Shown one piece after another: positions 4,955 through 59,836 of a DNA stretch of 64,000 nt. Both the position numbers and the translations under genes were made by a program. The notes under the pieces were generated by a model, which was not told the origin of the DNA, ran no database searches, and was given only the letters and a program-made list of their open reading frames with translations. Position 1 is the first letter of the stretch. Every line of letters starts with the position of its first letter. This DNA comes from Ornithodoros turicata (taxonomy: Eukaryota > Arthropoda > Arachnida > Ixodida > Argasidae), in NCBI RefSeq assembly GCF_037126465.1, contig NC_088201.1, positions 189,684,031 to 189,748,030 of the forward strand, read 5' to 3'.

Positions 4955-4996
4955 ATGGCACGTACCAAGCAGACGGCTCGGAAGAGTACCGCTTAA
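4955..4996 (+). pseudogene. H3: Histone H3 N-terminal fragment, interrupted after codon 10 (Lys9 of the mature protein)
   Basis: The codons from the ATG read MARTKQTARK, identical to the H3 tail through K9. From 4985 the sequence is the 5' end of a Tx1-like element (AGTACCGC...), which by chance keeps S-T-A before a TAA at 4994. The rest of H3 (normally 136 codons) was not found on either strand, so the gene is destroyed. The leader is very short, because element E1 and a C-run end about 27 bp upstream of the ATG. AGT ACC is also a plausible S10-T11 codon pair, so the breakpoint is ambiguous by a few bases. Ten consecutive identical residues plus the start codon make a chance match unlikely. 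Confidence 0.85.
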
Positions 4997-5303
4997 ACCA
5001 ATGGTAAGTCACTGCTGTTTTTGCTGTGCGCGTGTGCATCGAGTTATTTTACCGTGTGCCCCTCTTCGAGGGAGTCCCAGTAAGGAACCATTAAGGGATA
5101 GCAGTTGCTAGTAATAAACAAGTAGCGTAGAGTTATTCACCCTTAAGGTTAATTTCTTTCCAAATCAGTGTAACTTTGAGGCGCTCTTTAGCGGCACTAT
5201 CCGCTAACTTTGAGCGTTTAGTGGTGTGCTTTCCTGTGCGCCTAAAGTTCCTGTATATAATTAACATCTGAGCAAGTCAGCCTGAAGATGTAACCGTGTT
5301 GAA
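4985..5303 (+). mobile_element. Element X: 5' end of a Tx1-like non-LTR retrotransposon inside H3
   Basis: About 315 bp match, in inverted orientation and at roughly 85% identity by eye, the segment 12437-12747, which is the first part of the leader of Tx1-like element B. Shared blocks include AGTACCGCTTAAAC at the start, the CTTCGAGGGAGT block, CCAAATCAGTG, and TATATAATT followed by CCTGAAGATGTAACCG at the end. The match starts exactly at the H3 breakpoint, so this is the intact 5' terminus of a second copy on the opposite strand. It is cut off at about 5303, where minus-strand element C begins. No ORF is present. Confidence 0.75.
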
Positions 5304-7504
5304 CTTGCTTGTGCCAAGTGAGCCCTTTGTTTAGGTGGATTCCCAGCAATTTGTGGTGCGTCACTACTTGCAGTGGCTGGTTATCTACGTGGTTGGGGTA
5401 GTGGTCGAATGGCCGTTTGGTGAAAGGAAGAAAGACTGTCTTGGAGGGAGACACTTTCAGTCCATAGTCGCCCAGGTAGCTGCCACTGCGTCCATGGCTG
5501 ACTGTAGACGCATCGTTAGCAGCCTGCGGTCAGTGTGAGAAGTCCACAGGCACAGATCATCTGCGTACATTGATAGTTCGGTTTTTCCGGGCAGCATCGA
5601 AGGGAGGCACATCATTGTAACGTTGAAAAGGGTGCGACTCAGTATCCCTCCTTGTGGCACTCCTCTTGTCACTGGGTAATGGTCGCTTTGTCCGTCCGGG
5701 GTGTCGACGTAGATGTATCGGTCCGTCAGGTAGCTGTAGATGAAGTGGAGCAGCTTTCCACTGATCACGATACGTTTCAGCGCCGTCAGGATTTTCGAGT
5801 GATGTACGTTGTCAAACGCACCGCTAACGTCCAGGAATATGGCCGCAGATATCAGGCCCGCTTCGTTGTTGTGTTCCACGCTGCTGACGAGGTCTGCCAC
5901 AGTGTCGATGGTGCTTCTGTTGTTCCCGAAGCCCGCCATGCATTTCGGGTAGAGGCCGTTGCGTTCCAGGTACCACTGTAGCCTGCTGTGTACAATCTTC
6001 TCCAGCAGCTTCCCTATCCAGCTGCTGAGCGCTATGGGACGGAAGGAATCTAGGGTTGTGGGTTGTTTTCCGGGTTTCAGGAGAGGCTTTATCCTAGATA
6101 GCTTCCATGACTGTGGTATTTCTCCTGTGTCCCAGATTTCGTTGAAGAGACGAAGGAGCCGGGACAGCGCCTTGCAGCCAAGGTTCTTCATTGTTTGGTA
6201 TGTCACGCCGTCCGGACCAGGGGCTGAGTGCGGTGGGCAGCAATCCAGGACTTGTTGGAGCTCCAGCATGGTGAATTCTTCGTCAAGGGGATCCCCGGGT
6301 CGGTATTTCACGGTGATGGAGGCTGCTTGTGCAGATGAGTCGTCATTTTTTGCCAGCTTTTCACTGTACTCGTCCGCCAGCTCCTGGATTGGACGGTTGG
6401 TGGCGAGTGCCAGGGCTGTGAAGGGATGCTGTTGAGTTGCCGGTGTCGTTTCTTCCCGGATGCGGTCGAAGAGCTTCTTTGCTGCTGAGTGCTGTTGCAA
6501 GCTGTTGCAGAAGGATTGCCCATTTTTTTGCGCAGTTTCTCGAAGAGGCGTTGGATTTATCTTTGTATCCGCCTGGCTTCCCCGATGTCGGCTGGTAATT
6601 TGGTTCTTCTTGCTTTTCTTTCAGCGCGCCCCCGCATAGCACGGAGGCGCTCGTAGTCCCCTTTTACGTGCGGCACATTGACGGGAACAGTGAACACATC
6701 TGTGGCCGCCGTCATTCCTTCCTGGATGGCTGTTGTAAGGTCGTTGACGTCTGTGTTGGCTAGGTCGATATCCTCCAGCCATTTGGTGAGCCGTCCCCAG
6801 TTTGTCTTGTGCACTTTGTGTTTGCGTCTTTTGTCTGGTTGGTCACACAAAGTTAACAGCACAGGCACATGGTCACTTCCGTGAGTTTCTATGTCTGTCA
6901 CACAGGTAAAGGCAGTGATGAGGTTGCGGGATAAAAGGGCTAGGCCCAGTATTGTCCCTGATCGCGGATATGTCGGTTGTCCATCGTTAGCAGCAAATAG
7001 ATCCAGTTCGTCCATTAGGGTTTCGATGTCGGCACCCCGCCTATCCGTGGTTGCGGAGCCCCACATCGCGTTGTGCGCGTTAAAGTCACCAATCACAGTG
7101 TAGGGGCCAGGTAGTCTCTTTTGTTCACCAGTTAAAGGTCGCAAATTGTTGGCTGTGCAAGGTTGCAGATACGCACTCACTATGGCGATGTCCAGGCTGT
7201 GTATCCTTAGTCTGGCGGCACAGGTTTCCCATGTATATCGGTGCAGGTGGTAGAAGTCGTGCTGTGTGGGACTGAAGAGTTTATTTGTAGCGCGGCTCGT
7301 GGGTCCTGTCGGCTTTGCTGACTCGTACGTGAGGTAACCAGGTAAGCTGAAGTTTGCTGGAAGTATTCCTTCACTGAGACTCATCACAGGGAACTGATAG
7401 CGCGACACAAATTCACTGTAGTCCGCGATCTTGTTTCTCAGCGAACGGCAATTCCCGTGGAAGACCGTCGTCAGTCCGTATCGTCATATCAGGTTACAGG
7501 CCAT
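5304..7504 (-). pseudogene. C ORF2: APE endonuclease and reverse transcriptase, 3'-truncated
   Basis: The start ATG at 7504 overlaps the ORF1 stop (ATGGCCTGTAA), but the first frame stops after six codons, so the copy is broken. The APE core at 7408-6557 shows VIGDFNAHNAMWGS and HGSDHVPVLL. The RT lies at 6500-5457, with HSAPGPDGVTYQTMK, SFRPIALSS, GVPQGGILS and the intact catalytic box MYADDLCLW, followed by a thumb segment LGIHLNKGLTWHKQ just before truncation. RNase H and the C-terminal cluster are missing. Confidence 0.85.
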
Positions 7505-7965: not shown

Positions 7966-8365
7966 AGGTGTTGAATCCGCGGCGCCTCGCAGCACACAGA
8001 CGGAAGTACTTCAGGTCGGGTTTCGGGCCGGTTGCTGGCGTTGTCCCGGACTTGATTGCGGCGGCCAGGGCTGTCCTGATGTCTTCGCAGATGTCCTGGG
8101 AGGCTGAAGTTCCGTCCAGGGAGGCTCCGAAGGAGTCCCACACGATGATGGTGGTCCGGCGCTTCGGGGCCCAGTGCTTGTAGGCCAGGGTCACGTCGAT
8201 CGGGAAGTGGTCGCTTCCCCAGCTGTCCATTCCTTCCTGCAGTGTGCAGGAACGTCCGGGGTGTGCAGGGTGACGTCAATAGCACTGGATACTGGTGGCC
8301 TGTAAAAGTTAATCTCACCTGTGTTGGCGACGAGCAGACTACAATCCTCCAGGGACTGCACTAGG
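7966..8365 (-). mobile_element. Element D: APE-domain fragment of an I-type retrotransposon
   Basis: About 400 bp encode only the second half of an APE domain: LLVANTGEINFYRPP, SAIDVTLHTPDV and DSWGSDHFPIDV, then the linker DLKYFRLCAARRRG. It is wedged between the reverse transcriptase of Tx1-like element B and ORF1 of element C, all on the minus strand. Both ends are truncated. The closest wording in this window is in the APE regions of E1 and F. Confidence 0.7.
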
Positions 8366-10915
8366 TGGACTTTTGCACTTTTGTTTAGGACAGCATCGAA
8401 GGCCACTACATACAGCAGAGGCGACAGCGGGCAACCCTGTCTGACTCCAGTTTGAACATCAAAGCGTTCACTTACTGAGTACAATTCTATGGGGTAGATT
8501 GGGTTTATGATCCCTCAATAAAAATTTTGAAGAGAAAGTGCAAGAAGCAGTTCACTTACTGCCCCGCTGATGAGCACCCTACTGCATGGCGCCTGATATA
8601 ATGCTCTGATGCCGTTCACTAAAGCAGCATCAATACCGATCTTTTGCAATAAGAAATCGTGCCTAATTTTGTCGAAAGCTTTTTCTTGGTCGATAGTAAG
8701 CGCCACGCCTCCTATCTTCCTATCAGCAGCCCATGTTAAAGTGTCTCTAACTGCTATTTTCCTGTGAAGATTTCTACCGGTAACCCCTGCTCCCTGGGAT
8801 GAGGTGGTTGTATCTGCTGTTTCTTCAGCAAATTTGTTTGTCAATAATTTAGAAATAATTTTGTGGTCCGAATTTAATAGAGTAATAGGTCTCCAGGCAT
8901 CGAGATGCTCATTTCTTTCTTCGTTTTTACAAATCGAAACAATATACCCTTCTAAGAAATGTTGACCTAAGTCCCCCTTTTCTACGCCCTCATTAAAGCT
9001 CGCAACTGTCGGCCCCACAAGTTCAGCGTATTTGCTATAAAAGCCGTAGCCTAACCCATCAGGTCCAGGCGCACTCCCTTTACGCATGCTCTTTATTGCA
9101 ACAACCACATCCTTCGTTCTAAAGTGCAGGCTCTGGCCATCGAATGGGACGTCGCAGCCAACTGTTTGCTGGAACTGCATTGCGAAGAAACGACCATTGG
9201 CCATGTCTGTGGCTGCTTCCAGCCTGTGTCCCTAAGATGATATGAGGGAGCTCATTGTCCCTGTCGCCCGCCCCGCCGCTTTAGCAAGCCGCTGTCGAGA
9301 GCACCACGCCTTGCGTTCAAAGTCGTCGCGCGCAAGGCGGTACGAAGCCCATCCCAGCGCTACTCCCAGAGCCGCCGGAGGCGCTCATTCGCCTGCACTT
9401 TATTCACCCCGGCCAGTGTTGACTCTCCTCTTTCGAGGGCATGCAGATGCCTTTGCAGGCGCTCCGTTTCCTGCCTTTGAAGTGCTGCTTTTTCCCTGAC
9501 CCATTTCTGGAGGCACCTTTTAATGCGGTTCTTTGTTTTTGCCCACCAGGAAATCCAGGACTGACTCCCGTGGGGCAGTCCTCGGAGAATGTCGCGCACG
9601 TCCTTGTCTATCTCCACGTGCTCTAGCAATGCCATATTAATCCTCCAAGGGGCAACCCGGGAGCCATGGATTCCTATTCCACCTAGATTCGCCAGAACAG
9701 CCTTGTGGTCCGTAATACCAATTGTGTCAATAACTGCATTGTTGTTTTTCTTTTTGCTTAGTGATCCCGTGAAGTAGATTCGGTCTAATCGGTTAGCTGC
9801 TGTTTTTCTGGAGCAGCTGTAGCCCCTGTCGCTGTTTGCAGTATGCACCCAGAGGTCCTTCATCTTTTTACATTTTAATAGGAAATCTAATTCTTTAGCT
9901 GCAGCGGCGTTGCTGTGTCTGCGCTGCGAGCGGTTATTTGCTGTGTCAATGACACAATTAAAGTCGCCGGCCATTATAGTACTTTGGTTATTTATTAAAA
10001 AATTCGGGAGTTCGTGTTTGTAGAAGCTAAAAGGTGCTTTTGAGTTATTATGACCATAAACACTTAAAGCTACTAATTCCTCTCCATTTACCTTCATAAC
10101 TACCTTGAGGATTCTCCCCTCAGTATCTCGTTCCCATATTACCACTTTGATGTTATTACTATTCAGGATAATGATGACTACCCCTCTGGAGTTGTGAGTT
10201 CCAAAACTCCAGTACGATTTATTTATTTATTTATACTTCTAGCGTCATAGACGCCAAAGAAGGAGTGGGATTACATACACACGGAGAAACATCTTGCTCC
10301 GTAGCAGCCGCGGATATACAGAAAATTTAGAGAACCTCGAACACATGTATATACCATATATCAAAAACCATCTACACACGCATACAACCTTCACATAAGA
10401 TTACAACAAACGTAGCAGCACACTCTACCTATAAATTTGCGATCGCCAGCATAAAACTCGACAAGGTGTCACACCGTACCATTCCTTCCGTCAGTTCGTT
10501 CCATGCCTGAATGGACAGCGGAAACAAAGAGTACATAAGGCAGTTAGTCCTAGAAAATAATTGTTTAATGGATTTGCTATGTTTCGTTCGGTGGCTACCA
10601 GTTGTGTTAAATGTAATATAATCAGATGGCCTAATACAGGTATGGTTATTTATTATGAGCCATAGTAGCTTAAGTCGCTGAATTCGAGTCCTTTGATACA
10701 ATGGTGTCAGTCCTTTAATTTAACTCTGTGATTTTTTCCAAATTGACGATTTCTGCGCGTTCGAAAAGGTGGCTTTCTTGTATGAATAGGATTGAGACTC
10801 CTAAGAAACGGGCCAAATCAATAATTTCGTTTTGTTTCACTCTATCGCGCATGCCTCTTACGTTAATGGTCAATATTTTAAGGTCCGTGAATGGGTTAAT
10901 TTGGAGTTAATTTTG
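8366..10915 (-). pseudogene. B ORF2: APE and reverse transcriptase, interrupted by a CR1-like tail
   Basis: The APE N-terminus (ILTINVRGMRDRVKQNEI, about 10880) is separated from the rest of APE by the insertion at 10205-10725. APE resumes with NSRGVVIIL, MAGDFNCVID, NRLDRIYFT and ITDHKAVL down to 9360. The RT N-terminal half follows at 9204-8385 with APGPDGLGYGFYSK, AWRPITLLNSDHK, IDQEKAFDKI and TGVRQGCPLSPLLY. The YxDD box is lost beyond the truncation at about 8366. GDFNC and NxDRIY wording is typical of the L1/Tx1 side. Confidence 0.8.
10205..10725 (-). mobile_element. 5'-truncated CR1-like tail with (TTTA)n end, inserted in element B
   Basis: The coding remnant 10701-10429 resembles the C-terminus of CR1/Jockey-type RTs (SDYITF, RTNCLMYSLFPLSIQAWNEL), comparable to the end of G ORF2 (DDYISQ, RTQSFKHSYFPKTVDEWNAL). 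It is followed by about 220 bp of 3' untranslated DNA and an (AAAT)n tail, seen as tttatttatttattta at 10206-10221 on the + strand. It splits the APE domain of B, so it arrived after B. Confidence 0.75.
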
Positions 10916-10971
10916 TGTTCTTTACATTAAATTTACCTTGTTTTCTAAATCGCAACCCACCCAAAAGAGTT

Positions 10972-12117
10972 TTACTGTTTGCTCCTTGTATTTTTTGCCT
11001 TCCGCTTTTTCCTTTCACTCCGTCTGGGAGTGCTAGGCACGACAACCTCCTTGTCTGATTCCTCTTCCTCTACCAGCGTTTTGTTTCCTTCGTTTTCGGA
11101 CTCTGTCCAGGTGATCGCCGACTCTGGGGTGGTCTCAATCGTTGTAATGGACTCACTGTCCGACTCTTCCGTTGTTGACCCCAGAGCCTCAACGGTCTCT
11201 GGAACAACATTCGTTTTCTCATCTTGTGGAAAATCTGTTTCGTGCTCTTTACTTTCTACCGGATGTTGTACGACATCCGCTACTTCCAAATCATTTCCCT
11301 GCTGCGCTCAATTTTCGTTTCGCTCGCTTGCAGCCTCCTCCACGTCCCCGCTTGTTTCTCCCGTCTTTTCAGACTCTTTCCTTTCATCCATTCCGAAGCC
11401 AAGTTTGGGGAAACCATTTTTATCTAACCAAAAGCTTCTTGTAGGGTCATCCTCAACTTCCCTGGTCACCTGTGCCGCCTTTACACCCCATGCGGCTGGT
11501 CCCTTACGCCCAACAACCTTGTTTGCTTGCTTTTGTTCACACTCGCAGTCCCCTTCAGTCATCTTACCACAACCTCTGCATTTGCTTGCTTGGCAGTCCC
11601 TTGCCACATGGGATGCCGCTTCGCCCCTCACACATCGTTTTTCTACCCCACTGTAGAAACATTCGGCCCGCACTTTTCTTACGGTCATGAAATTCGGCAC
11701 GGCCGTGCTCATTTCCATGAGCACCAACCGACTGCCGCTTTCACAGTCTGAATGTTCTCCAGACAACATCTCCCGCTTAGTTTTTATTACTTTCCGATAC
11801 TCGCTCAGCGCAGCCTCTAGCTCAGTATCGGGAAAGTCAATTGGGTATCTGTAAACAGTCACCCTTTTCACCTTGGAATCCAGCGGCCACAATTCAACCT
11901 CTTTTCCGCCGATCTTCAGTTTCCCTTGTTCCTTTAACAACCTAGCTCCATCGAGATTGTGCAACACCACCTCATAGAAACCTTCGCCAAGTGCTTGGCC
12001 TCCTCGTATGAGGCCGGGTGCCACTACTTTAGCTGCCGCTAAGACCTCTTTCAAGAAGCACCCAATTGGGGCCTTCACCTTGAAAGCGAAGGGCCGTTCA
12101 ACGGCCACCTCGTCCAT
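10972..12117 (-). pseudogene. B ORF1 (Tx1-like nucleic-acid-binding protein), one frameshift
   Basis: The ATG at 12117 opens 269 codons. The N-terminal half (about residues 1-150) aligns by eye with M ORF1 (GQALGEGFYEVVL against VQALGRGRHEVEV; AVPNFMTVRKVRAECFYSGV against PVPNFLRIAQWTVQAEYTGV). A Cys-rich region follows at about residues 155-195 (C-V-R-G-E..HVARDC, CRGCGKMTEGDCEC). After a break near 11300, 105 more codons are acidic (EEEESDKEVV) and end with the basic stretch RRSERKKRKAKNTRSK, which could act as a nuclear signal. It lies downstream of the long B leader and upstream of ORF2. Confidence 0.7.
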
Positions 12118-12747
12118 GACTCGTTATTTCAACTCTTTCTTTCTTCAAGCTTATAACGCACACACTTATATGAGCTAAAATTACACCTCAAGTAACCCAA
12201 GGGAGCGAAATATTTACATTGGAAAAGTTAACAGTACATGTTTATTACAGCCAATCAGTGAGCGCGTCCGTTGGCGGACCTGTGAGAAGCCAACCGATCG
12301 GCGGCGGCCCGATGAGAAACCCTCTCGGTCGCCCGAATGCTAAAGGTTGGAATCACCCGTGCGAGCAATGCTAACACCCGCTGAATGCTGCCTAAGCAAC
12401 AAGAGAAATAACTAAGTAACTGAGAGGAACATTAAATGCAAACGGTTACATCTTCAGGCAGACTTGTTCTGAATGTTAAATTATATACAGGAACTTAAGG
12501 CATGCAGGAGAGCACGCCACCGAACGTTGGAAGTTAGCGGATAGTGCGCTAAAGAGCGCCTAAAAATTGCACTGATTTGGAATGAAATCTTGAGGCTCAA
12601 TAACTCGACACTACTTGTTAGTAGCAAATGCTATCCCCTAATGGTTTCTTACCGGAACTCCCTCGAAGAGGAGCACACGGTAAAAAGACTCAATGCACAC
12701 GCGCACAGCAAAACAGCAGCGATTTCCCAACATGTTTAAGCGGTACT
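12118..12747 (-). promoter_or_regulatory. 5' leader of Tx1-like element B
   Basis: About 630 bp without an ORF, from the terminal AGTACCGC to the ORF1 ATG. The first 310 bp recur as element X. They contain a TATATAA-like motif (about 12473) followed 20-30 bp later by the end of the shared block. An internal promoter is expected for such leaders, but its function here is inference. The second half is GC-richer, with TTGGCGG- and CGATCGG-type motifs. Confidence 0.45.
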
Positions 12748-14195
12748 CATGTATCGCAAACTGATACTGATGGAACACCTATTAGAGAGGTGTCCATCTC
12801 CTAAAATTTGGCAGAGCCCTACTAATAAAACCTATAACCCAAATATTCCCTCAATGTTTGCGACCGGGTCTCCGGAGATTCCCGTTGCTGTTCTCGCACC
12901 TGGAGGGCAACTAAATGCCAAAGTTCCTAGTATTCCGCCATGCCTCCTGTGCCCACAGGCTCCCCAGTCGCGCCGTAAAGGCGGACCGATGGGGGAGCCG
13001 CGTGGTAATGATAAGACCAATTGCCCTACAATTCCCCTTTTCCCATTTATTAGCCTTACGCATTACTCGATTAATGAAGTTTGAATTTGATGATGCCATG
13101 TTCGGCTTTGAAACCGGGACTGCCAGTCTCTTTTATAAGCTTCTTCCCCCAACCTCACATATTCCCTGCTTAGCCATAATCTAACGTAAAAACGTAAGTG
13201 AGCCCTTTTAGATTGAAGTATTTTTTTACCTCCCCCCAGATCCTTGCAGCGGTCATGCATTCGAAAATCGCATTCCTTACCGTCTCTGGGGACCGACAGG
13301 CAATGCAAGTTCCATCTGATGATTTTTTTCCAGTTCCCTAACCGGGATGACTTCATGAGCGATTTTCCACATCAAACTCTTTCTTGAATCCTCAACCCAA
13401 AAACGTGAAATTCTGCGCCACGCTTGAGGCACGAGTTTACTTTCCGCTGAGTCTTCCTCTTTAGTCCTTAGAACCCCGTAAATTTCGTTAGCCTTCAGGT
13501 TTGGGTAATCCAACTCCTTGTTTATTTCTTTCAATTCCCTGACCGTATATTTGCTAATTTTATACGTCCATGGGAGATAGGCGAACTTGGCTCCTGAAAT
13601 TTCCACTCTCCCAGGTATGAACCACCCTATTGCGTAGCCCATCAAAAATTTAGTTATCTCTTCTGCCAAACACTCTCATTCCAAACAATTATAAATTCCC
13701 CTTAGCAAGTGAGCTCTGTTCAGTGTTTCTAGGTCCGGTATTTCTACCCAGCCTTTATCTCTGCTGAGCATCATTTTTTTTCTGACTTATCCACTGAGTC
13801 CGCCCCTTCCTACAAAAATTGGAAGATTAACTGTCTCATTTTGGTGAGAACCTCTTTTTTGACTGCATGTACCCCAAATAAATAAGCCCATTTTGGAATG
13901 ATGAATGTGCTTATTATTCTTGCTGGCGTGAGGAGTGGGACACTTGCCCCTCCAACTTTATCTAGTTTTTCTTTACATTCTTTTAATTTCAATTTCCCAT
14001 TACTCTCTGCTACTCCCATTTTGTTGTAATATATTCCCAGAATTTTTTATTTCTTCTTGTATTTTGACCCCGATATCCCTTCTTGGCTGTAATCCTCCTA
14101 CGTACATGCAGGAGGATTTTGTTCTGTTTATTTCCGCTCCACCAACTTTCCCCCAGTTTTCAACCGTTTTTAGTGCTTCCTCGGCCGAAGCCCAG
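12748..14195 (-). mobile_element. Element A: 3' part of a Tx1-like retrotransposon, head-to-tail with B
   Basis: It begins in the RT palm/thumb (VGGAEINRTKSSCMYVGG at about 14150-14100) and runs through the C-terminal region to a 3' untranslated segment (about 13062-12748). Its last base is directly followed by AGTACCGC, the start of element B, in the same orientation. It is 5'-truncated at about 14195, next to a short tagtgcg-type repeat and element F. Confidence 0.65.
13063..14195 (-). pseudogene. A ORF2 C-terminal region (RT thumb and Cys/His end)
   Basis: Broken frames contain RT-connected motifs (INRTKSSCMYVGG; PARIISTFIIPKWAYLFGVHAVKKEVL at 13960-13810) typical of L1/Tx1 ORF2 after the YADD box. 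A tail follows with tryptophan-rich WRRISRFWVEDSRKSLMWKIAHEVIPV and the cluster LHCLSVPRDGKECDF..HDRC, resembling the CCHC-like end of L1/Tx1 ORF2. Frame changes occur near 14010, 13800 and 13340. No catalytic box is present in the retained part. Confidence 0.6.
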
Positions 14196-35343: not shown

Positions 35344-35544
35344 CCCCATACCGCACCGAATGAAGAAGACCAGGACAAAACTGTGAAAGACAAGAGTGAT
35401 GCCCAGAACAGAGCATCACAAGTGACAGCAGTGAAGTCATATACATCACTCAACATCCCAGAAGTGGAGCTGCAGGTGCCACCAATGACTACCAAATAGC
35501 TCCAGCCCCCTCTCAGTTTTAGATAGATAGATAGACATTCCACT

Positions 35545-35668
35545 TCGAGTACGTTGCTGGAAGCACTGTCATCATGCCACCTTAACCTTCGGGTAAAACC
35601 GTGAGTACGTTGCTGGAAGCACTGCCATCATGCCACCCCAACCTTCGGGCAAAGCGGTGAAGAAGGCC
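35545..35668 (+). pseudogene. H2B: Histone H2B leader and first 13 codons, with a 56-bp tandem duplication
   Basis: The sequence AGTACGTTGCTGGAAGCACTG plus a start region occurs twice, beginning at 35548 and 35604. The second ATG (35630) reads MPPQPSGKAVKKA, matching the arthropod H2B N-terminus. The first ATG (35574) reads MPP then stop, then PSGK. Element K begins immediately after codon 13 (GCC, 35666-35668). The frame continues at 48026 beyond K. The leader joins the upstream segment 31279-31454 if element J is removed. The duplicated leader may have arisen by replication slippage or repair at an insertion. Confidence 0.85.
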
Positions 35669-35845
35669 TGAACCAGCGTCTTTGAAGTGTTCCCAGCCCT
35701 TCAGGGGCCCTGCTTCGTTGAACACCACTTTTCAGTGCTACCATCCATCTTGCGTGTGCAGCCCCAGCTGTCTACTGGGGCGAGTGTGTGTGTGTGCAGT
35801 GTAACCTGTGCGCCCGTGTGGATTTAGGCTATCATACAGCCGAAG

Positions 35846-37553
35846 ATGTCCACAGCCATGGAACTTTCCAAGGAAGGCGGCGACCCGACCTCTTCAAATG
35901 TAGCAGGTGGGACAGCCTCCACTCCTAAGAGATCTCGCTTTGAATCAGAGAACTCCTCTGTAGATTCCTCCATTGAGTCGTTAATCGCTAACGAGGATCC
36001 ACAAAAAATGAATGAGGGTAAGGATGAGACTCCCTTCATAACGGTTGTCCATAAAAAGACCAGGAAAGGCGGAATTCCCGTCATTCTAACTCCTGTTAAG
36101 AAAGATGGTTCTTTCCTAACCGTAAACCAAACACCCTAGCTAGCGAAGTGCTCTTAGCAACACAAGAGCGGATAAAGAGCCAGCGCATCTGTAAAGATGG
36201 CAGCCTTGTGATCACTGTTGGCTCTTTGTCCGCCGCTAGAGCATTACTGAGCCTCACATGCCTAGGCAATCTGGCTCTGACTACTCGCATACCAGATTCC
36301 TATGCCGGATGGGGCCCAACTGGTCCTCCTGATAATCCCTTTCATTTTCACGGCACTCAAGGCTATCATACACTGTAAACTGAAAAACACCCTGATGAGT
36401 GTAAATGGCTTGTCCTATAACTCACACCACTTTTTACACTGTATGGTCTGGAACACCCTTTTTAGAGGGTGTATTCTGTGTAAAACACCCTTTGAAGGGG
36501 TGCTCTTCCTTGAAAATGCCTTGTTTTGCACCCTTTAAACACCCTTTTAGGAGGGTGTTTAACACTCTTACACCCTTTCGAAAGGATGTAAGCTCCCGCA
36601 GCAGCATGCCGAGCCATGCAGTCCGACGTTTTTGCTTGTATGGGAACAACCACCCTATAGAGACGGTACAGTTCTAGCCGTGGTTCCCCCGCAGAACCTA
36701 AACTGGAGCGCAGCGCGTCGCTGGCAACCCTCATCGTCCTAGCAACACTGGGTGAGCAAAAAATACAATTGAAATAAAATGAAAGCAAAACAGTTGGACA
36801 TGCGTAAGGGAAGAGGTGAAGATCGCAACATCGTAACGCCGTCCGTGCTCGTGAAATGAGCGGCGTTACGATGCTGCCATCTTCAGACGATGCCAGTAAT
36901 GAGCCCGGGCATCCCCGGTAGCATAAATTGGCATACCAGATTGATCATATACTCAAAATACAGTTCGTTGGAGTACGTTCGCTAAGCTTAGTGCGACAAA
37001 ACTCGTCTGTAACGGTGATGAAAATGTGTATTTGCAATTAACACGTACGCCTGTAACGAGTCAAAGATATCAGCGAGCTTCCTGACATCCCTCCCTGTCA
37101 AATATTGTGTTTTCAACTCAAGCTATCGTCTATGATGTGATTACCTAATGAGCGGAGCTGTCAAGCCAATGTAATTTTTTCTCTCACGAATGAAAACACC
37201 ATTTTCAACACCAGTGTAGATAGGGTGTATATAACGTAAACACCTTTTTCGACACCAGTGTTACTTGAAGGTGTAAACGCATAAAAACACCCTTTTTGAT
37301 ACAGCACTTGGTGTAATAAAGAGTGTATTTTCTCACACCTTTTTAGCACCCTTTTTGCGGCGTTTGGTTAACTTTGTGGAATTAAAAAAGGTGTATTTGC
37401 TTAAAAACACCTTTTTTTACCCAGAAAGGGTGTTTTTGAATTTACTGTGTAGCTGCAATGCCAAACGCCCGTTCTGTCTCTTAGGTACAGCAGGCCTTAG
37501 CGTTTGAGACGCAACTCCTGGACATCCTCTCTTCCAAACAACATGGGCAGTAA
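35846..37553 (+). pseudogene. K ORF1: gag-like, internally deleted and split by a MITE
   Basis: The ATG at 35846 gives TPKRSRFESENSS, TPFITVVHKKTRKGGIPVIL, a stop, then LASEVLLATQERIK and TRIPDSYA, as in J. At about 36305 the sequence jumps directly to the C-terminal hydrophobic tail (LVLLIIPFIFTALKAIIH), so the zinc knuckles and FPPLP region (about 700-900 bp in J and I) are deleted. The MITE then interrupts the tail. The last piece, VQQALAFETQLLDILSSKQHGQ, ends at TAA 37553. The stop overlaps the ORF2 start (ATGGGCAGTAA, 37543-37553). Confidence 0.75.
36371..37449. mobile_element. 1.08-kb MITE with TA flanks, inserted in K ORF1
   Basis: The ends are inverted: CACTGTAAACTGAAAAACACCC at the left and, on the other strand, CACAGTAAATTCAAAAACACCC at the right. 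The flank is TA on both sides (36369-36370, 37450-37451), the duplication expected for Tc1/mariner-type elements. Both subterminal regions are packed with ACACCCTTT / AGGGTGT palindromes forming many small hairpins. The centre (about 36600-37150) is unrelated DNA without a gene. Confidence 0.75.
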
Positions 37554-41490: not shown

Positions 41491-41498
41491 GAGATGTT

Positions 41499-45052: not shown

Positions 45053-48025
45053 TTAATGGAGAATACGAGCGCCTTCGGGTCGCCAGGAGGAGGGCTGAAC
45101 GACGTGCTAGGAAAACAAAAAATCCTGTACACATACCCGAAGCTAATCAAATTCAAGCAAAAATCCGCCGCCTCTTGCAAAAACTGTCACAGAACACATG
45201 GAAGCATTTCTGTGAGGGTCTTTGCAAAAAATGAACTCTGACAGAACTTTACCAACACGCAAAACGGAAACGAGACTTGCCACAACAGGAACAGCCATTT
45301 ACTGCACTTTCCCTTTCCACCGGCACTCCCATTCTTCAGCTCGCAGATCAATACTGCCACAAACTCACGGCAGGCTGCACGCCTTCTCCCTCTGAGTACC
45401 CAGAGCTGCCTGCAACCAAAACAAAGAAACACAACGAACTGGATGATGATTTTTCACTCAGTGAGCTTAGGAGAGCATTAGAGACCTGTCCAAACCACTC
45501 CTCCGCCGGACCTGACGGCATTACATATGAAGCATTAAGAAATCTAGGTGAAGAAGCCCTGTGGCACCTCCTGGGCATTATTAACAACATATGGGAAACG
45601 GGAAACATACCAGACGAATGGAAAATTTCCAACATCAGACCAATACAAAAACCAGGCAAACTGCCAACCAGTCTGGACGCTTTCAGGCCAATTGCACTTA
45701 ATAGCTGTATTGGCAAGATCTTGGAAAAATGGTCAAAATCCGTCTCGAATGGTTCCTGGAAAATAACTACATATATCCAGAATGTATGACGGGTTTCAGG
45801 AAACACCGTGGCACAATAGACTCTTTAAAAAGATATTATCTCATCAGTCCAACACCAGAAATCCGTACGGAACTTTTCTGCTGCAGTTTTCCTAGATATT
45901 CGAAAGGCGTTCGATTCCATAGCACACTCTGCCATTATGAAGGACATATTGCGAATTGGAATCAGAAGCCGACTGTACCAATACATAAACAGCTACCTAA
46001 CAAACCGACAAATATACATGGGAACTACAGATGGCGACAGCTCCTTACACAAGGTAAACACAGGAGTCACTCAAGGAGGCATCTTATGTCCAATACTGTT
46101 CAACATAGCCATGTTATATCTATGCTGATGATATATGCATATGGGCTGCTCACCACAACGCCTCAGTCTCGTGGCCCGGCTACAAGCGGCGGTGAGCACA
46201 ACTGCGCATTATCTCAGCGTACGTGGAATGAGCATCTCAATAGACAGAGCGGTCATGCTACCGTTCACACAACGTCCATTCCACAAGTACCCTATCAAAA
46301 TAAACAGCACTCCAATAGCAATCAAAACAAAGCACAAATTCCTCGGGGTTACAATAGACCGACTCCTCAGCTGGGCACCGGAAATACGCTCCATCCAACG
46401 AAAAACAGCTGGATACATGAACATCCCTAGAAGTATGGCAGGACATACGTGGGGACCCCAAGGAACATCCTAATGCAGATTTATCGCACTCTAATACTCT
46501 CCAACTTGAGATACAGTCTATCTTTGTTATAGCGGGTGGCTAAAACAAATCTTAAGAAACTCAGCCAAACTCAGGCCTCAGGGCTGAGACTTGTTCTTGG
46601 AGTCGAACGACATTCCCTCACACGACAAGACATTCAGCACTCCTAGAAGAAGCACGAGAAATACCCTTCTCCTTGCTTATCACACACTGAAGGTACATCT
46701 ACGTCATAAAACCGCGCACGTTCGTTAAGCATCCTCTAGCCAATCCTGGCACCCAGCGAATGGGCTCAGAAGCGAGCAAAACAATGCTTCAGTTCCATCC
46801 ATACCTGCCGACGGATTTCCGACCTGCAAAAAGGGTTACCATGCCACCATGGAGGCTCACAACACCTGAAGTCCAGTCACGAATCCCAGGGATGCCAAAA
46901 AAAGTCAGAAACAGCAACATCTGTAGTCACACAACTAGGACTTCAAAGGATAGCTGAGCTCCAGGATAGGCTAACGCTCATCTACACAGACGACTCCACT
47001 ATAGATCTGGGTTCAACCTCTGCAGTATATTTCCCACACAAGGAGGCTATCCTGTCCCACAAGCTAAGCCACAGAACTTCATCAACAGCAGCTGAGCTGC
47101 ACGCCATCCTCACCGCCCTCAAACTTATCCAAATAGAAGAACACCCCACAGAATGGGCTATACTCACTGACTCCCAATCTGCAATAGCAGCTGTTTCCTC
47201 TCCCAAAGAGTCAGAATGTTCCTCCCTGGTGAAGGAAATGCGCACATTCCACACAAGCTCAATCTATGCTGGCCACTCAGTCCTTCTACAGTGGATCCCA
47301 GGGCACACCAACATACCTGGAAACGAAATAGCTGATAAAGCAGCTGGCGACGCACGCGCGTTAGATAAAACAACAGCAATACCTCTTTCAAAGTCAGACA
47401 ACAGAGCAATAATCCGGGAAATTACAAAGGCTCAGATCGATCAACTATATCAGGATCCTGAATGGAGAAACAGAAGATTGGCCCATCTCGACAGATCTTA
47501 CCAGTACCACTTTACAAAACACATGCCAAGGCAACAAGAAGCACTGATTCATAGACTCAGAATGGGTGTTGCAAACACAGAAGCTTACAAACACAAACTA
47601 AAAATTGTACCCTCACCTATGTGTCACACCTGTGAAGAATTAGAAGATGAGACACACATACTTCTGTACTGTAAAAAATTCTCCACACAAAGGAAAGTCT
47701 TAGAGAAAGGACTGCTGCACCTTCATAACGGACCCCTGACCATGCACAAAATCTTAGGCGCCTGACCCTCCAAAGCCTCCTGCTTCACAGCAGCAGGACT
47801 CCTGCTCTCCTTCATCAGGGAGTGCGACCTGCAACTATAAATCTATAACTATAAACACACCCACATAAATAGTTCCTCTTCCTTTCTCCTGCGCCCTTTC
47901 CATAACTAAGCCTCCCACCTACCCTCTCCCCTCCCCCACCTTTTTACCCCAATTACCTAACCCCCTTTTCCGGTAGAGCAGCAAGTCAGCCCTAGCTTGG
48001 TTAACATCTCTATAAACCCATAATG

Positions 48026-48082
48026 AAGAAGAAGAACAAGGCCGGCAAGGCGCAGAAGAACGTCCTTGACACGGACAAGAAG
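48026..48082 (+). pseudogene. H2B: Histone H2B middle fragment (19 codons) between elements K and L
   Basis: In frame with the 13-codon piece left of K, these codons read KKKNKAGKAQKNV then LDTDKK, corresponding to the conserved GKAQKN...TDKK part of the arthropod H2B tail. A Lys-Lys-Lys-Asn-Lys stretch replaces the expected short spacer, probably target duplication plus slippage of AAG repeats. Element L begins at 48083, right after an AAG codon. The coding continues at 57481 beyond L. Confidence 0.85.
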
Positions 48083-48282
48083 GTGTGCCGAAAAGCGCAC
48101 GTGGGTCCACCGTGGTTCTTCGAAGGCTGCTTCTCCGATAGCTCCTGCGGGAAACGGTCTGTTAGCGAAAGCGACTAAGTGACTTTGCTCTTGGCCTCTG
48201 GGTCTACCACCTGCCCATATCTTGTTGGTGACCGGCGGTGTCGAGGTAAGGGGGCTTGGCCGGAGCTCCCCGCGGTCGTAAG

Positions 48283-49348
48283 ATGCCGGTCAGCGGCGGG
48301 GCGGACCTGTACTGGTCCGCGTCCAGCGACATTGGCTCCTTCCCTTTGGACCACTTCTTAGAGAACGGGCTCTCTGCCATTCCTGTTGTTCTACTGCCTA
48401 CGAATGGGTCTACCATACGCTCAAAAAACCCTAAGATACTTATTCAGTGCCTAGAGGGCGTAACTCACGATTTTAAGGATATTAATGAGGTACGTCAGTA
48501 CGGAAAAGACGACATCGTTTGTCAGTCATAGTAACCTTCGCGGGGCACAACTGTCCTTGGGAAATAAAATCGTGGCCGCTGATATTTCGCGTGGATTTGT
48601 TCAGACGTAGACCGCTGCAGTGTAAGCGCTGCTACCGCTTTGGCCACGTCACTAAGCACTGTAAGTCCGAGATGCGCTGCCGGCGCTGCGGTGGTTCCCA
48701 TGACGAGTCTGCTTGTTCCCCTGATTCCTCTTTGAAGTGCTGTCTATGTGGAGGCGATCACAACGCTGATTTCCCGGCTTGTCCCTCTCGCGATCTGGAA
48801 ATAGCTCTCTTAGATCTTATGGATTCACGTCACTGCTCTGGTGTCGAAGCTGCTTCTGTGCTTAAGGGTCGTGGTGATTCGTTTGCCGCTAGGACTCAGG
48901 CTTCCGGGCTTGCCCCGGAGAGACTTGAGAAAATGATTACTGATGCTGTGGAGTCCGCTGTCGCCAAGCTAAAAGAGGACATTTGCTCTCTCAACTCCCT
49001 GCTTGCTTCTCTAACTGCTGCCCTCCAGGACACTGTGTCCTCAGGGGCGCGGGTTGCTTCTGCGGCTCGTGGTCCTGGCGGCTCGGTGTCTGCCGAGGCA
49101 ACTCCGCCTCTAGGTTGTACGCCCATTCTTGCTCGCCCCCCGGGTGACTGCCAGGATTCCGAAATGCATTCCGACATAGATTCCGTACGTTCCGTAGATT
49201 AGTACATTCCGTACGTTCCTTGCCCAAGCGCGGTGCTTCAGGATCGGGCTCCCTTCAAGGCAAGCGCAATAAGAAAGGTCGTAAACAGCAAGTGAGTAGT
49301 GGCGTCCTTGCCACCGCCGTTGCTGAATCCATGCTCGCTGATGGATAG
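48283..49348 (+). pseudogene. L ORF1 (gag-like, three CCHC knuckles), frameshifted
   Basis: The ATG at 48283 gives an N-terminal domain (GSFPLDHFLENGLSAIPVVLL, ILIQCLEGVTHDFKDINEV). A frameshift at about 48525 leads to LFRRRPLQCKRCYRFGH and the knuckles CKRCYRFGHVTKHC, CRRCGGSHDESAC and CCLCGGDHNADFPAC (about 48615-48780). A helical region (APERLEKMITDAVESAVAKL) and a Ser/Gly/Pro-rich tail follow. The frame ending at 49202 shifts once more to a basic C-terminus (KRNKKGRKQQ...ESMLADG) whose stop lies in the ATGGATAG overlap with ORF2. Confidence 0.75.
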
Positions 49349-52257
49349 CCTTCGCATACTCCAGTGGAACTGCTACTCTGTACTCAACGGCCTTCCAGAC
49401 CTTAACACACTAGTTTCCTCTTGTTCTCCGGATGTTATTTTACTTCAAGAGACTTAGCTTTCTGCTTTTCGGTCCTTTTCTCTTCCCGGTTTTCATGCGT
49501 ACCGCTTAGACCGACTAGCTGGCTGCGGTGGTGGCCTGCTGACACTTGTTTCCACATCCCTCATTCACTCTTCCTCTGTTTTCTATGAGCAATCATCTCT
49601 GGTCTGGGAAGTGATCGGCGTTCGCCTCGCCTCGCCGTCCCCAAATATATCTGTCATGAACGTCTATTGTCCTGGTGGCTTTCTCTCCGCCGGGCCCGTG
49701 GATGCTGCCGTGGCCAGGGCTTCTGGTGACGTTTTAGTAGCCGGGGATTTCAACTCCCACCATGTCCAGCGGGGCCATAAGACCGACTCGCGAGGCCGGG
49801 ACTTGTGGGCTTGGATTTGCCAGCGAAACCTTCTGTGGCTAATGATGGATCGTCTACGTTTCTCCGAGGGACTGCGCGCTCTGCGATCGACCTGACCTTG
49901 TGCTCTCCCCGGATCAAACTGTCTTCGTGGAGGGCCAGCGATTCGTCCACCAACAGCGATCACCTACCCATTTATTTCGAGCTCCTGTCCTCCGCACTGT
50001 CTCTGTGCGGTCCCACTGTAACCGCTCCCTGCAAGAGAAGAAACTTGCTTCATTGTTGGCTGGAAGCGATGATCTCCCTCCTCTGGACAGGGCAATCTCG
50101 TCTCTTTCCTCTCTCTCTCAATCTCTGCAGCAGTCCACTTTTAGGGTGGAGAAACGTACTTCCTCAAGCTGTGCTCCTTGGTGGACCGGTGACTGCACGA
50201 GAACCTACAGACGCCGCAAGGCAGCCTGGAAACAAGTGCTTGCTAACACATGCTACGCGAACTGGACACATTTCAGCGTCTCAGGGCTCTTTATAAACGC
50301 ACTATCGCTGCCGCCAAGCGTAACTTTTATTCGGGTCGCAACTCATTCCTCTCAGCTCCGAACTGCAGGAAAGCGCTACACAGACACATTGCTTTTATCC
50401 GCAGATCCTTCTCCACTGCACCCCCGCTCTAACCGTCCTTTCTGATGCCGACTCAAGCTCGCGCCTCGAAGGAGTCGCGAGGGGGCTTGCTCTGCGGTTC
50501 TCGAATGCGGTAGCCGTCGTATTACCTGCCCTTCCAGCTCCATCCTCTGGGTTTCATGCTGTCTCCCCCGCGGAGCTGGAATGTGCTGTGGGGGCTCTTC
50601 CTAACAGTGCTCCCGGTCCTGACGGGGTTAGTGCAGCGGTGGTTAAGCACCTTTGGGCGAACCACCGATCTGTATTGCTGAATATTGTGAATTCGTCCTT
50701 GGAGCACGCATGGATCCCCCAGGTCTGGAGGCGGTCTCGAATTGTCGTCGTTCAGAAGGTGCCCTCCCGGGGCATCTCTCTCGACAATATTAGGCAAATC
50801 GCACTGACGTCAGTCCTTTGTAAGACTGTCGAGCGTATCATTCACTGCCGGCTATCGCCGTTTGTAGAGTCCTCTCGTGTTCTCAACAAAACACAAATAG
50901 GTTTTCGCGAGCATTGCTCCATTTGGTTGGCCCACACCAGCCTCGAGTGCCAGATCCGCCTCGCCCGCGAGAGGGGATTTCTCTCTGGGCTGGTGGCTCT
51001 AGATGTTGCTAAAGCCTATGACAGCGTAGAACATTCGGTGCTCCTCCAGGAGTTAGTGAACGCTAACTCTCCCCCTTACCTGATTGCTTGGGTCATGGCC
51101 TTCCTCTGTGATCGCTCATTCTTCTGTTCTGCTGGTTCCTTAGTTTCTTCATCTTACCCCCAGAGTAGGGGCGTCCCCCAAGGATCGGTGCTCTCTCCCA
51201 TATTATTCAATGTTTTGGTGAGCTCCCTCCCATGTGACCCGAGCATTACAACTTTTACGTATGCGGACGACATTGCTTTCTTTGCTTCGGCGCCCTCATT
51301 GTCTGAGTTGTACGCTAAGCTTCAAGCCTACCTGGACACCCTGGCAGCCTGGATAAGCTCTATGCACCTTTCTCTGAATGTGCACAAGTCGGCCATGCTC
51401 GTGTTCCCGCTGAACACTACAGTCACCATCGACATGCTAAGTTGGCCTGCAATCGGTCCGTCAAGTTAAGCAGCTCAAGTACTTGGGGATGTGGTACGAC
51501 GAGAGCTGGCGTCACCACATAGATCACTTGTGTCTAAAGGCAACGAAGGCAATCGGCGTCTTCCACCGGTGCTCTAGCCCCCGTGTCGGCATGCGTAGAG
51601 ATGCCCTGCTCTACGTGTACCGTTCTTACGTGCGACCCATTTTGGAGTTTGGAGCAGTCCTTTTTTCCTCCCTGCCTGACTGGCGACTAACCAAACTGTA
51701 CATTTTGGAGCGGCGGGCCCTCCGCCTCTGCTTGGGCCTTCCCCGGTATTCGGCCAATGATGCACTTCTCCTTGAGGCACGGTTGCCTTCTCTCAAGGCT
51801 CGGTTCCGGCTACTTACAGTGAGCATCTTCCTGTCTCAGTGCCAGAACTCCCTTGCGCTGTCAAATAATGCGGCTCTCATGGATGCTCGGCTGTGGTTAA
51901 CTTGGCAGTGGCACCGTAGAAATACTCCACAATTAGTTTTCGCCGAGCAACTCCTTCTGCCATTAAAGGTTTCGCTCTTCGATGTACTCCCCCTCAACTT
52001 CTATCTCCACCGAGCCGGCCGCTTTTCATCCCCCGCGTGTCCCCACTGTGGCCAGTACGAGACGTTCACACTTCCTCATGCAATGCAGCTTTTACGCTAG
52101 GCTTCGAGAGGCCTATATATGTCATCCACTCCGTCTGCTGGGGGTTCCCGTGTCCCTAGCAGCCCTCCTTTCGTTTGGAGCCTCCAGCACTTCCAGCTGG
52201 GATATGTCGGTAGCGGTTGGGCTTGCATATTTCCTTTCTCGCTCGCGCCGCTTCTAG
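49341..52257 (+). pseudogene. L ORF2: APE endonuclease and reverse transcriptase, frameshifted
   Basis: It starts MDSLRILQWNCYSVLNGLPDL. APE shows ILLQET followed by a stop, LVAGDFNSHHVQRGHKTDSRG (about 49740), VANDGSSTFLRG, SAIDLTLCSP and TNSDHLPIYF. The RT has SAPGPDGVSAAVVK, DNIRQIALTS, RGVPQGSVLSPILFN and the intact box YADDIAFFA (about 51260). The thumb (YLGMWYDESWRHHIDHL) is in another frame from 51483. The C-terminal CPHCGQYETFT...HAMQLL cluster ends near 52100, with a short tail to 52257. No RNase H. Main breaks are at about 49455, 49840, 50440, 51470 and 52070. Confidence 0.8.
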
Positions 52258-52710
52258 CCCACCTTTGCATCCACCCATTCACCCACCTACCCACAATCAC
52301 CCATTGAGTGTTACCACGCCGTGTGTTACGTGCACGCCGAAGGAGCCCATTAGGTCTGAGAAATTCTGGTGGCTCTCCCGCACGAGGCGAGTCAAAGCAA
52401 CATAAGTCTGCAGAGGGTGGCCGAAGGTAAACAATGGCATCTGATTGCTTTGGTTTACCCCAAGTATAACTCCGTGCCACACTTTCAGTGTGAGTATCCA
52501 ACTCCGCGGGCTCTTACTTACCTGGAATAGACAGCCACGGTCAAACACACAGCCAGGCATCTACACTGACTACTACACAATCACTCTACTACAATGGCTT
52601 CTGCTAATGAATACTACAATTAGAGTCACTAAATAAGCTACGCTTCAGAGTATCGACACTGAGGCAAAAAGAGCCGCCATGTTGTTTCGGATGACCTCCA
52701 GCCCCACCTC
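52258..52710. other. L 3' region and inserted foldback arm left of element G
   Basis: No gene is supported. The outer part up to about 52310 is probably L 3' untranslated DNA. The segment 52621-52701 is an inverted copy of 57170-57237 on the other side of element G (shared GAGGTCATCCGAAACAACAT, CAGTGTCGATACTCTGAAGC and AGTGACTCTAA on the opposite strand). Confidence 0.5.
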
Positions 52711-57092: not shown

Positions 57093-57480
57093 TTTGGCAG
57101 TAGAAATAGATTAAGGTGAAGTTCAGCAGTGGAAGAAGACAACACTTCGAAGAGCGCTAAATGGATGGCGCTGGAGGTCATCCGAAACAACATGGCGGCT
57201 CAGTGTCGATACTCTGAAGCTTATTTAGTGACTCTAACTACAATGCGTCTACATGTCAATTATGCAAATAACCACGACATGCACGATGCTTGCCCTTGTG
57301 CCATGGATCCAAAACAAGCGAACTTCAGCACCTCCACCACTTCAACCATTACATTCTGCACCCAACCATCTTCCACCCATTTCCCCACCCAAATTGTCAC
57401 CGTCAAGTCATAGTACAGTTGGACATCCTCATAGCCCTGGCCGATCTCCCTTGGGGCTAATGGCCATTCTCCGTGGGACG
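57093..57480. other. Foldback arm right of G and 3' end of element L
   Basis: 57170-57237 is the inverted partner of 52621-52701. From about 57260 a C/A-rich stretch (ACCACTTCAACC, CCACCCATTTCCCCACCC) and GGCCATTCTCCGTGGG lead to the H2B lysine codons, and is taken as the 3' end of L. No gene. Confidence 0.5.
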
Positions 57481-57786
57481 AAGAAGAAGAAGAAGAAGCG
57501 CAGGAGGAAGGAGAGCTTCAGCATCTACATCTACAAAGTCCTGAAGCAGGTACATCCGGACGCGCGCGTTTCCAGCAAGGCCATGTCCATCATGAACAGG
57601 TTCGTGAACGACATCTTCGAGCGCATCGCTGCCGAGTCCTCGCGCCTGGCGCACTACAACGTGCGGTCGACCATCACCAGTCGGGGGATACAGACCGCCG
57701 TGCGCCTGCTGCTGCCCGGCGAGCTGGCCAAGCACGCCGTGTCCGAAGGTACCAAGGCCGTCACCAAGTACACGAGCTTCAAGTAA
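57481..57786 (+). pseudogene. H2B: Histone H2B, C-terminal three quarters (globular domain to stop)
   Basis: It starts in the Lys run ([12 protein letters not shown]) and covers the whole histone fold: [70 protein letters not shown] and [11 protein letters not shown], stop 57784-57786. Differences from the near-invariant metazoan sequence include N-R-F for N-S-F, N-V-R for N-K-R, R-G-I-Q for R-E-I-Q and D-A-R-V for D-T-G-I. These suggest relaxed constraint after the gene was broken. With the pieces at 35630-35668 and 48026-48082 it completes one H2B gene. An ATG at 57460 in element L could prime an artificial frame, but that is probably coincidental. Confidence 0.95.
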
Positions 57787-57819
57787 GCTGCGGTTCGACC
57801 ACCACCCAGAACAACCAAA

Positions 57820-57835: not shown

Positions 57836-57893
57836 ACCCCAAATGCTTTCCGCAGGGGCAGAGCGTTCTTGCGTGACATGTAGAAAACAAAAA

Positions 57894-58273: not shown

Positions 58274-59560
58274 GAGAGGGCATGCTTAACTGCACTAGTT
58301 GTATCGTGCGCACGCGGACGAGCGCAGTTGAACGCGCTTTTGTTGAACAAAGAAGGATGCCAGTGAAAAGGTTAGCCAGCCTTGCGCTTAACACCTTGCG
58401 CATTTCCATCGCGCTTTGGTTGTCCCTGCGCGTGGTTACTTTGGTATTTCGGCGGAGAGATAAACGGAGCAGCTCGCGCCTCGTTTGTGAGGCTACTGCA
58501 TGGTTACGTGGAATGATAACCGCTGTCATGATAGTGACGATAATACTAACAACGACAATAACAAGAAAGAGAGAAGCGGCTGTCCTACCTTGCGGTTTTC
58601 GGAGGGAATGGGACGGACGGAAAAATAAATATATAAATGAATAAACAAACTAACTAACTAACTAATAAATAAATAAACAGACAGACAGACAGACAGAACA
58701 GTAAAGCGAGTACATGCCGCAGACGACACGGGCATTCCGCCGATGCCGGCTGGCGCAGCCAGGCCTCCGCAGCTCTCCGCATTTGCGGCAGTAGAAAAGT
58801 AAAATCGTGTCATAGTCACTTGGTATTACGTCGTTAGGCATCATGACCGATGCCCATTGGCCGAAGGAGGATGCGCGCTCTGGGATTGGTTGATAAAGTT
58901 TCGAAATATCGGACAGCTCACTTTTCGCGGGCAGTCTGGGCAGTCGGCCAGGCGGGCAGCTCCAAGCAAGGTCGCTGCGTCTCCGCGGCTCGCCGATGTC
59001 GGTTGATCACAACGACCAAAGAGGAAGTGTATGCTCGGGTTTGTTCGTGAGTTATAGTGACTCTGGCCATGTATTGATCTCCGATAAAGTGTCAACCTAC
59101 GGACATTCTTGCCGGGTCGGAACTGTAATGCTTGGTGAGCTGACGCCTGAGGAACACTTTCGAGCGCTGTCGCATTTTCAAATACAGTGAGTAAGAGGAG
59201 AGTGTTCGTAACGACAAAAGTATTTCCTGTGACTGTGTGACCTACGGTGCATTGCCAGAATGAGAAGAAGATGCTCATCTGTGAAACACACGCACTCGCG
59301 GACTTCGCTCGCCTCCAGAAGTAGACTGTTTGTGTTCTTTGCAAGCTCGAACTTGGTTTGGTTGCTGTCTATTCAAGGAACGAAACGTCCTGTACGCACG
59401 GTGAATATATCAGTCAAACATTTAAGTTTATACGTTGCATCAATATATATGTATTTAGACTATAAAAACGTCCTAGTTACTTTGGAATCACGTGCGCCAG
59501 CTATGAAAACCAGTAGAAGTCAATGGCAGCCAGGGCCGGCCGAAAGCCGAGCCAAACTGA
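58274..59560. other. Spacer between 5S and the H2A/H4 promoter
   Basis: No supported gene. Contains (TAAC)n, (AAAT)n and (CAGA)n simple repeats at about 58640-58697. CCAAT-type boxes lie near 58856 (CCCATTGGCC) and 58883 (GGGATTGGTTG). ORFs here are short and unconvincing. Confidence 0.5.
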
Positions 59561-59806
59561 GAGGTTGCTGATTGGTTGGCTGCTAGGCATCACGACGCAT
59601 TTTCGTTGGTCGTATGTCCAGTGTTGCCTGAATTATCTCAAACTATGGGCTGTATGGGGAGCTGTGAGCGCGGGGCGCAGCATTTTGCGGGACGCGCGAG
59701 CTGTCTCCCCATTGGCCAGAGAGGCGTCTCCGTCGTGGCCGGCGCGCGAGCGCCGTATGCAAGCATCAGTCAGTCGCTCGCTCACATTCCAGCAGAGGTA
59801 GCAGAT
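59561..59806 (+). promoter_or_regulatory. Probable H2A/H4 promoter and leader
   Basis: The 245 bp upstream of the histone ATG contain repeated CCAAT-type motifs (TGATTGGTTGG at 59569, CGTTGGTCG near 59604, CCCATTGGCCAG at 59708), a GC-rich segment (GCGGGGCGCAGC) and TATGCAAGCAT (59756), close to the octamer ATGCAAAT used in histone promoters. The leader ACATTCCAGCAGAGGTAGCAG precedes the ATG at 59807. No strong TATA box was found. This is inference from motif content. Confidence 0.5.
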
Positions 59807-59836
59807 ATGTCAGGCAGAGGAAAAGGCTTAGCTTAG
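59807..59836 (+). pseudogene. Histone H2A or H4 N-terminal fragment, interrupted after seven codons
   Basis: ATG TCA GGC AGA GGA AAA GGC reads MSGRGKG, the shared start of arthropod H2A (MSGRGKGG) and many H4 proteins. The sequence then departs: TTAGCTT and AGTACCGC (59835), the 5' terminus of Tx1-like element M, giving L-A-stop. H2A is slightly favoured because many arthropod H4 genes begin MTGRGKGG, but this is not decisive. The rest of the gene would lie beyond element M, outside the window. The CCAAT-rich upstream DNA supports a genuine histone start. Confidence 0.75.

What the first reader, a model, noticed from the sequence alone, without database searches (positions are those of the whole stretch)
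4955..59836. Core histone genes repeatedly cut by non-LTR retrotransposons
All recognisable histone segments end at a retroelement boundary: H3 at codon 10 (element X), H3 leader (E1), H2B leader (J), H2B codon 13 (K), H2B lysine run (L), H2A/H4 codon 7 (M). That is six boundaries within a few hundred base pairs of histone coding or leader DNA, from at least two unrelated lineages (I-type and Tx1-like). Site-specific non-LTR elements are well known for rDNA, snRNA, 5S and telomeric targets; I know of no described histone-targeted group. The alternative is random accumulation in a decaying cluster copy.
Basis: partly seen in the sequence, partly recalled or inferred. Interest (0 to 1): 0.88.

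Follow-up and report, generated by a model that had tools for sequence, protein, structure and literature searches.

The report
Retrotransposons that target histone genes
In this arthropod-like genome several kinds of jumping gene repeatedly cut into the same few bases at the start of the core histone genes, much as other known elements do in ribosomal RNA genes, which would be a new, protein-coding kind of target.

Summary
The window (C1:189684031-189748030 of a 1.07 Gb genome) holds one H3, one H2B (cut twice) and one H4 gene, each broken near its 5' end. Genome-wide, 6 H3 pieces start at codon 9, 10 H2B pieces at codons 7-12 and 14 H4 pieces at codons 6-15. The 6 H3 junctions agree to the base, yet their element ends form four groups only 51-66% alike, against 90-100% alike H3 flanks: at least four separate insertions. 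One whole X is 5,486 bp, with open ORFs and an exact 11-bp duplication AAGAGTACCGG. X is L1/Tx1 group; some others are I-type. Specificity is not absolute: 7 of 12 hits of one X 3' end are off H3. Copies elsewhere of three other families carry the H2B leader, suggesting use of the histone promoter. The target lists I read name RNA genes and repeats; protein-coding histone genes would be a new target class. Not tested: long reads, RNA, other species.

The parts
4955..4991 (+). 5' piece of an H3 gene (ATG to AAGAGTACCG); 4982-4991 is the target copy
4992..5487 (+). 5' part of an X element joined to H3 (right end approximate)
8350..12740 (-). second X copy on the minus strand: ORF1 (12144-11047) and ORF2 pieces (10903-8350)
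12741..14188 (-). 3' part of a further X (12751-14188) and a target copy (12741-12750), directly upstream of the X that starts at 12740: X-TSD-X tandem
30086..35535 (+). J, I-type element with RNase H, ending in (TAGA)n; left edge approximate
35536..35629 (+). H2B leader from CATTCC on, present twice in tandem (first to 35602, second from 35603)
35630..35668 (+). H2B codons 1-13
35669..36301 (+). 5' part of K (I-type ORF1-like)
45053..48037 (+). I-type RT and RNase H region whose 3' end (AAG-rich) abuts H2B; may or may not be the same element as the K 5' part
48038..48082 (+). middle piece of the same H2B gene (codons 12-26)
48083..52620 (+). L: ORF1 with CCHC motifs (by eye), EN-like and RT fragments; interrupted by a nested minus-strand element (52929-56740)
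57238..57486 (+). 3' end of L
57487..57783 (+). H2B codons 25-123
59807..59826 (+). H4 first 20 nt (MSGRGK + GG)
59827..64000 (+). M, related to X (ORF1 60041-61375; EN 61508-62569); continues beyond the window

Best explanation
The core histone genes of this genome are the insertion niche of several families of site-preferring non-LTR retrotransposons. X (L1/Tx1 group, APE-type endonuclease) cuts H3 at the bases of codons 9-12 and inserts by target-primed reverse transcription, leaving an 11-bp duplication AAGAGTACCGG. That duplication recreates the target, so a second X can land beside the first. Other families use sites in the first ~27 codons of H2B and H4. Shown: precise recurrent junctions, an exact target duplication for X, independence of insertions for X and A, an X with open ORFs. 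Inferred: that the endonuclease sets the specificity, that elements are transcribed from the histone promoter (hence in S phase), and that the multicopy arrays buffer the damage.
For: H3: 6 of 6 pieces that start at codon 9 read '..CAATAC or CGATAC|AAGAGTACCGGTGGC', with strongly diverged element ends. X at C1:170.198-170.204M: 5,486 bp between two exact AAGAGTACCGG copies, ORF2 frame of 1,119 codons without stops, EN+RT; L1 ORF2p 243 bits against R2 79 bits in the PDB. 5' side: 9 of 11 X hits include the 5' end and 9 of those 9 are at H3 or at X-TSD-X. H2B: 10 of 10 junctions read are of three recurring non-H2B types; A in three groups 72-84% alike with 96-100% alike H2B flanks of 47-57 bp; target duplications of ~16 bp (A) and AAGAAG (C) if the paired pieces are one gene each. 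H4: 14 pieces start at codons 6-15, from several element types. Promoter use: copies outside the clusters begin with the H2B leader (D: 3 read of 9 listed; F: 2; K: 1). Control: 4 of the 150 scored RT matches lie in the histone stretches as I drew them (C1:168.0-170.3M, 188.2-190.1M, 235.55-235.60M, counted by eye).
Against: One X 3' sublineage: 7 of 12 hits not at H3, four of them sharing one flank (at least four off-target events). Some histone breaks lie elsewhere: H3 at codons 23 and 30, H2B at codon 75. I-type ends at H4 and H2B have A/G-rich tails that could simply favour lysine codons. Many copies within 168-170M and 189M are duplicates. K, D and F have copies outside histone clusters. 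No family-first counts for L, M, N, A, B, C or D. Gene conversion from intact arrays could keep flanks alike, though not alongside open ORFs in strongly diverged elements.
Confidence: 0.86

Rival explanations
1. One or few old insertions in a histone cluster were multiplied by duplication of the cluster; gene conversion from intact genes keeps the flanks alike.
For: The window and a downstream segment are 91-98% identical in blocks; X copies L011-L015 are 84-96% alike with 87-94% alike leaders; A copies L056, L057, L060, L062 and the three B copies are 91-98% alike.
Against: Four X groups with 51-66% alike ends share one base-exact junction with 90-100% alike H3 flanks; one X has open ORFs and an exact TSD close to intact histone genes; different families share the H2B region.
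Confidence: 0.08
2. The histone 5' pieces are captured promoters that form the 5' end of the elements, not traces of insertion into histone genes.
For: K, D and F copies outside clusters carry the H2B leader.
Against: At C1:170.2M the H3 gene resumes after X with a duplicated target; the A pieces at 170.22M fit the same. Starts near the leader's CATTCC motif fit read-through transcripts.
Confidence: 0.04
3. I-type elements only prefer A/G-rich runs, and histone tails, rich in lysine codons, are incidental hits; only X-like elements are truly specific.
For: Tails (CAAA)n, (AAGG)n and AAG-rich merge with AAAGG, AAGGG and AAGGCC in the targets.
Against: Many copies at the same codons of H4 and H2B, though several are duplicates. 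Not decided here.
Confidence: 0.3

Closest known systems
Target-specific APE-type elements of the Tx1 clade; zebrafish examples of target-specific elements: Mutsu (5S rRNA), Keno (U2), Dewa (tRNA-Leu spacer) (PMC4640811, PMC3706591, passages; that these three are Tx1 clade is recalled)
   Same: APE-type endonuclease, L1 group, insertion at one site of a multicopy gene
   Different: Target is a protein-coding histone gene; clade not placed by a tree here
R1 and R2 in 28S rDNA (PMC3706591, passages; [quoted passage not shown]
   Same: Multicopy gene array as niche, more than one family; dependence on the host gene's transcription (only suggested here)
   Different: R2 is RLE-type and scores far below L1 for X; target is not an RNA gene
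Utopia in U2 snRNA genes (PMC4640811, passages)
   Same: Target specificity for a multicopy gene of low copy number, with weakly specific families
   Different: RLE-type; RNA gene target

Membership tests
Non-LTR (LINE) retrotransposon | RT plus endonuclease ORF2 | tested here: met
   X ORF2: PF00078, PF03372, PF13966; PDB L1 ORF2p 243 bits
Non-LTR (LINE) retrotransposon | Target-site duplication | tested here: met
   X 11 bp exact; A ~16 bp and C ~6 bp from pieces paired by position
Site-specific non-LTR element | Independent copies at the same base of the same target | tested here: met
   X, four groups; A, three groups
Site-specific non-LTR element | Most copies at the target | tested here: inconclusive
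   X 5' end: 9 of the 9 hits that include it (of 11 hits); one X 3' sublineage 5 of 12
L1/Tx1 group | RT closest to L1 group | tested here: met
   Scores against PDB chains only
Tx1 clade | RT tree placement within Tx1 | not tested
   No named reference set in hand; motif resemblance is recalled
I group (J, K, N, B) | RNase H after RT | tested here: inconclusive
   J: RNase_H; homologous pieces before the K and N 3' ends; B known from its 3' end only

The most novel reading that the evidence does not exclude
The histone loci are a shared niche, comparable to rDNA, in which about ten element families of at least two lineages have each settled on sites in the 5' ~27 codons of H3, H4 and H2B, are transcribed from histone promoters in S phase, and replicate there: the first retrotransposon guild specific for protein-coding genes.
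Probability: 0.6. Interest if true: 0.92.

Novelty: new variant of a known kind. Interest (0 to 1): 0.86.

Why it matters
In the passages I read, site-specific retroelements target RNA genes, spliced leaders, telomeres, microsatellites or transposons. Histone genes are multicopy and highly conserved, which fits the stated rule for good targets, but they encode proteins and are expressed in S phase (general knowledge). A histone-targeted guild would give a new natural test of how target choice evolves and how hosts keep enough intact histone genes, and new endonucleases with defined sites.

Tried and rejected
Histone retrocopies as an explanation: RetroSeeker (PMC11727581, passages) treats histone mRNAs as sources, not targets; not this. 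'H2A or H4' settled as H4 by its leader. Six paper searches aimed at histone targets or site-specific elements listed no histone-targeted element in titles or abstract starts (of the listed papers only PMC11727581 was opened); two more served to find target lists. The M 5' end search did not complete. No genome-wide H2A or H1 search was made. Structure prediction was not used. One translation was off by one base and redone; one family scan was rejected for a frame error and rerun without that protein. On that check I lowered the main confidence from 0.88 to 0.86 because breaks at other codons and off-cluster K, D and F copies had been left out of the evidence against, and raised two rivals by 0.01.

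Full report
What is in the window. A second copy of the segment, 91-98% identical in aligned blocks, lies downstream, so I looked elsewhere for independent evidence.

H3 and X. A search with H3 gave 23 matches: 8 full length, 6 that begin at codon 9, and 9 others (pieces at codons 1-30, 1-54, 1-100, 23-88, 23-136, 39-136, 47-136, 81-136, and a 46% relative). So a few breaks lie at other codons. I read the junctions of all 6 codon-9 pieces. Each ends in CAATAC or CGATAC and goes straight to AAGAGTACCGGTGGC, which is H3 from the codon for K9. On the other side, 6 of 11 hits of the X 5' end follow the first codons of H3 up to AAGAGTACCG (L015 is two bases short, L011 has one changed base in it); 3 of 11 follow the 3' end of another X plus a similar target copy, and 2 of 11 lack the 5' end. 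One complete X (C1:170198496-170203981) has AAGAGTACCGG on both sides, exact, with 5,486 bp between, an ORF1 frame of 392 codons with CCHC motifs (seen by eye) and an ORF2 frame of 1,119 codons without stops. Pfam finds an APE-type endonuclease, RT and zf-RVT in ORF2 and nothing in ORF1 (374 of its 392 residues scanned).

Independence. The last ~250 bp of the elements fall into four groups that are 51-66% alike, while the first ~100 bp of H3 after the junction are 90-100% alike. Duplication of one insertion would let both diverge together. Gene conversion could keep flanks alike but would not keep ORFs open in strongly diverged copies; only one X was read in full, so openness is shown for that one. 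The five 5' copies L011-L015 may be duplicates of one event, and may belong to the same insertions as some of the 3' ends.

Off-target copies. A search with the 3' end of one X sublineage gave 12 hits: 1 at H3, 4 at X-TSD-X, and 7 elsewhere, of which four share one flank (three of the tandem copies were read earlier). The specificity is strong, not absolute.

H2B. Of 27 matches, 7 are full length, 1 covers 4-123, 10 begin at codons 7-12, and 9 are other pieces, including the window's and one that ends at codon 75. I read all 10 junctions: type A 6, B 3, C 1. A copies form three groups 72-84% alike with 96-100% alike H2B flanks. Two pieces at 170.221M and 170.228M, paired by position, give a ~16-bp duplication for A with one base changed; two at 168.186M and 168.197M give AAGAAG for C; the DNA between was not read. 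A native H2B leader query gave 40 hits; I read 12 of them. D follows ATGCCACC (once GTGCCACC) in two H2B leaders. In the array beside intact H2B genes at 235.58M, a leader is followed by a second leader and element E (L071). A tRNA-like SINE (by eye) sits at about the A site in one gene (L068).

Promoter use. Copies outside the clusters begin with H2B leader: D at 3 sites read of 9 listed with the same end point, F at 2, K at 1. D starts at or within a few bases of CATTCC, which I recall as a histone cap-site motif; F, K and E start about 6-15 bases later. The window itself has the leader twice. The simplest reading is that transcripts start at the H2B promoter, read into the element and are reverse transcribed with the leader. 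No RNA data support this yet.

H4. Of 31 matches, 12 cover 1-103 (one with an internal stop), 14 begin at codons 6-15, and 5 are others. I read 12 of the 14 (and the one in the fetched segment); in three of these the stretch ends inside the tail, so the junction base is not seen. Alignment starts can include a few residues read from the tail. Ends are (CAAA)n, (AAGG)n or A-rich, on similar 3' ends, plus one A-like end. (AAGG)n ends are found at two different positions of H4 (L087 and L092), hence separate insertions; the six (CAAA)n ends look like duplicates.

Control. Of the 150 scored RT matches genome-wide (of 36,680 candidates), 4 lie in the histone stretches as I drew them, against 11 of 11 for the X 5' end. 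This control is coarse: it pools all RT families.

Literature. Passages of PMC4640811 and PMC3706591 list targets as rRNA, tRNA, snRNA, spliced leader, transposon, microsatellite and telomere; neither main text contains the word histone. Subscription papers and Repbase were not searchable, so prior description cannot be excluded.

Noticed in passing
window 52929-56740 (-): A nested minus-strand non-LTR element with an open 889-aa EN-RT frame inside L
   Followed up: partly
window 56472-57092: Tandem repeats of ~280 bp at the 5' side of the nested element
   Followed up: no
L068 (C1:168144172-168144272): A tRNA-like SINE begins at about the family A site in H2B, suggesting SINEs may use the same machinery
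   Followed up: no
C1:157.2-162.7M: Seven H2B leader pieces ending at the D site, mostly in pairs about 7 kb apart; the two that were read are D copies and share an upstream flank
   Followed up: partly
C1:119.2-119.5M: X 3' ends and H2B leader pieces close together; possibly another decayed histone cluster
   Followed up: no
3' ends of X, A and C elements: Short predicted hairpins near the 3' ends, seen in the four ends folded
   Followed up: partly
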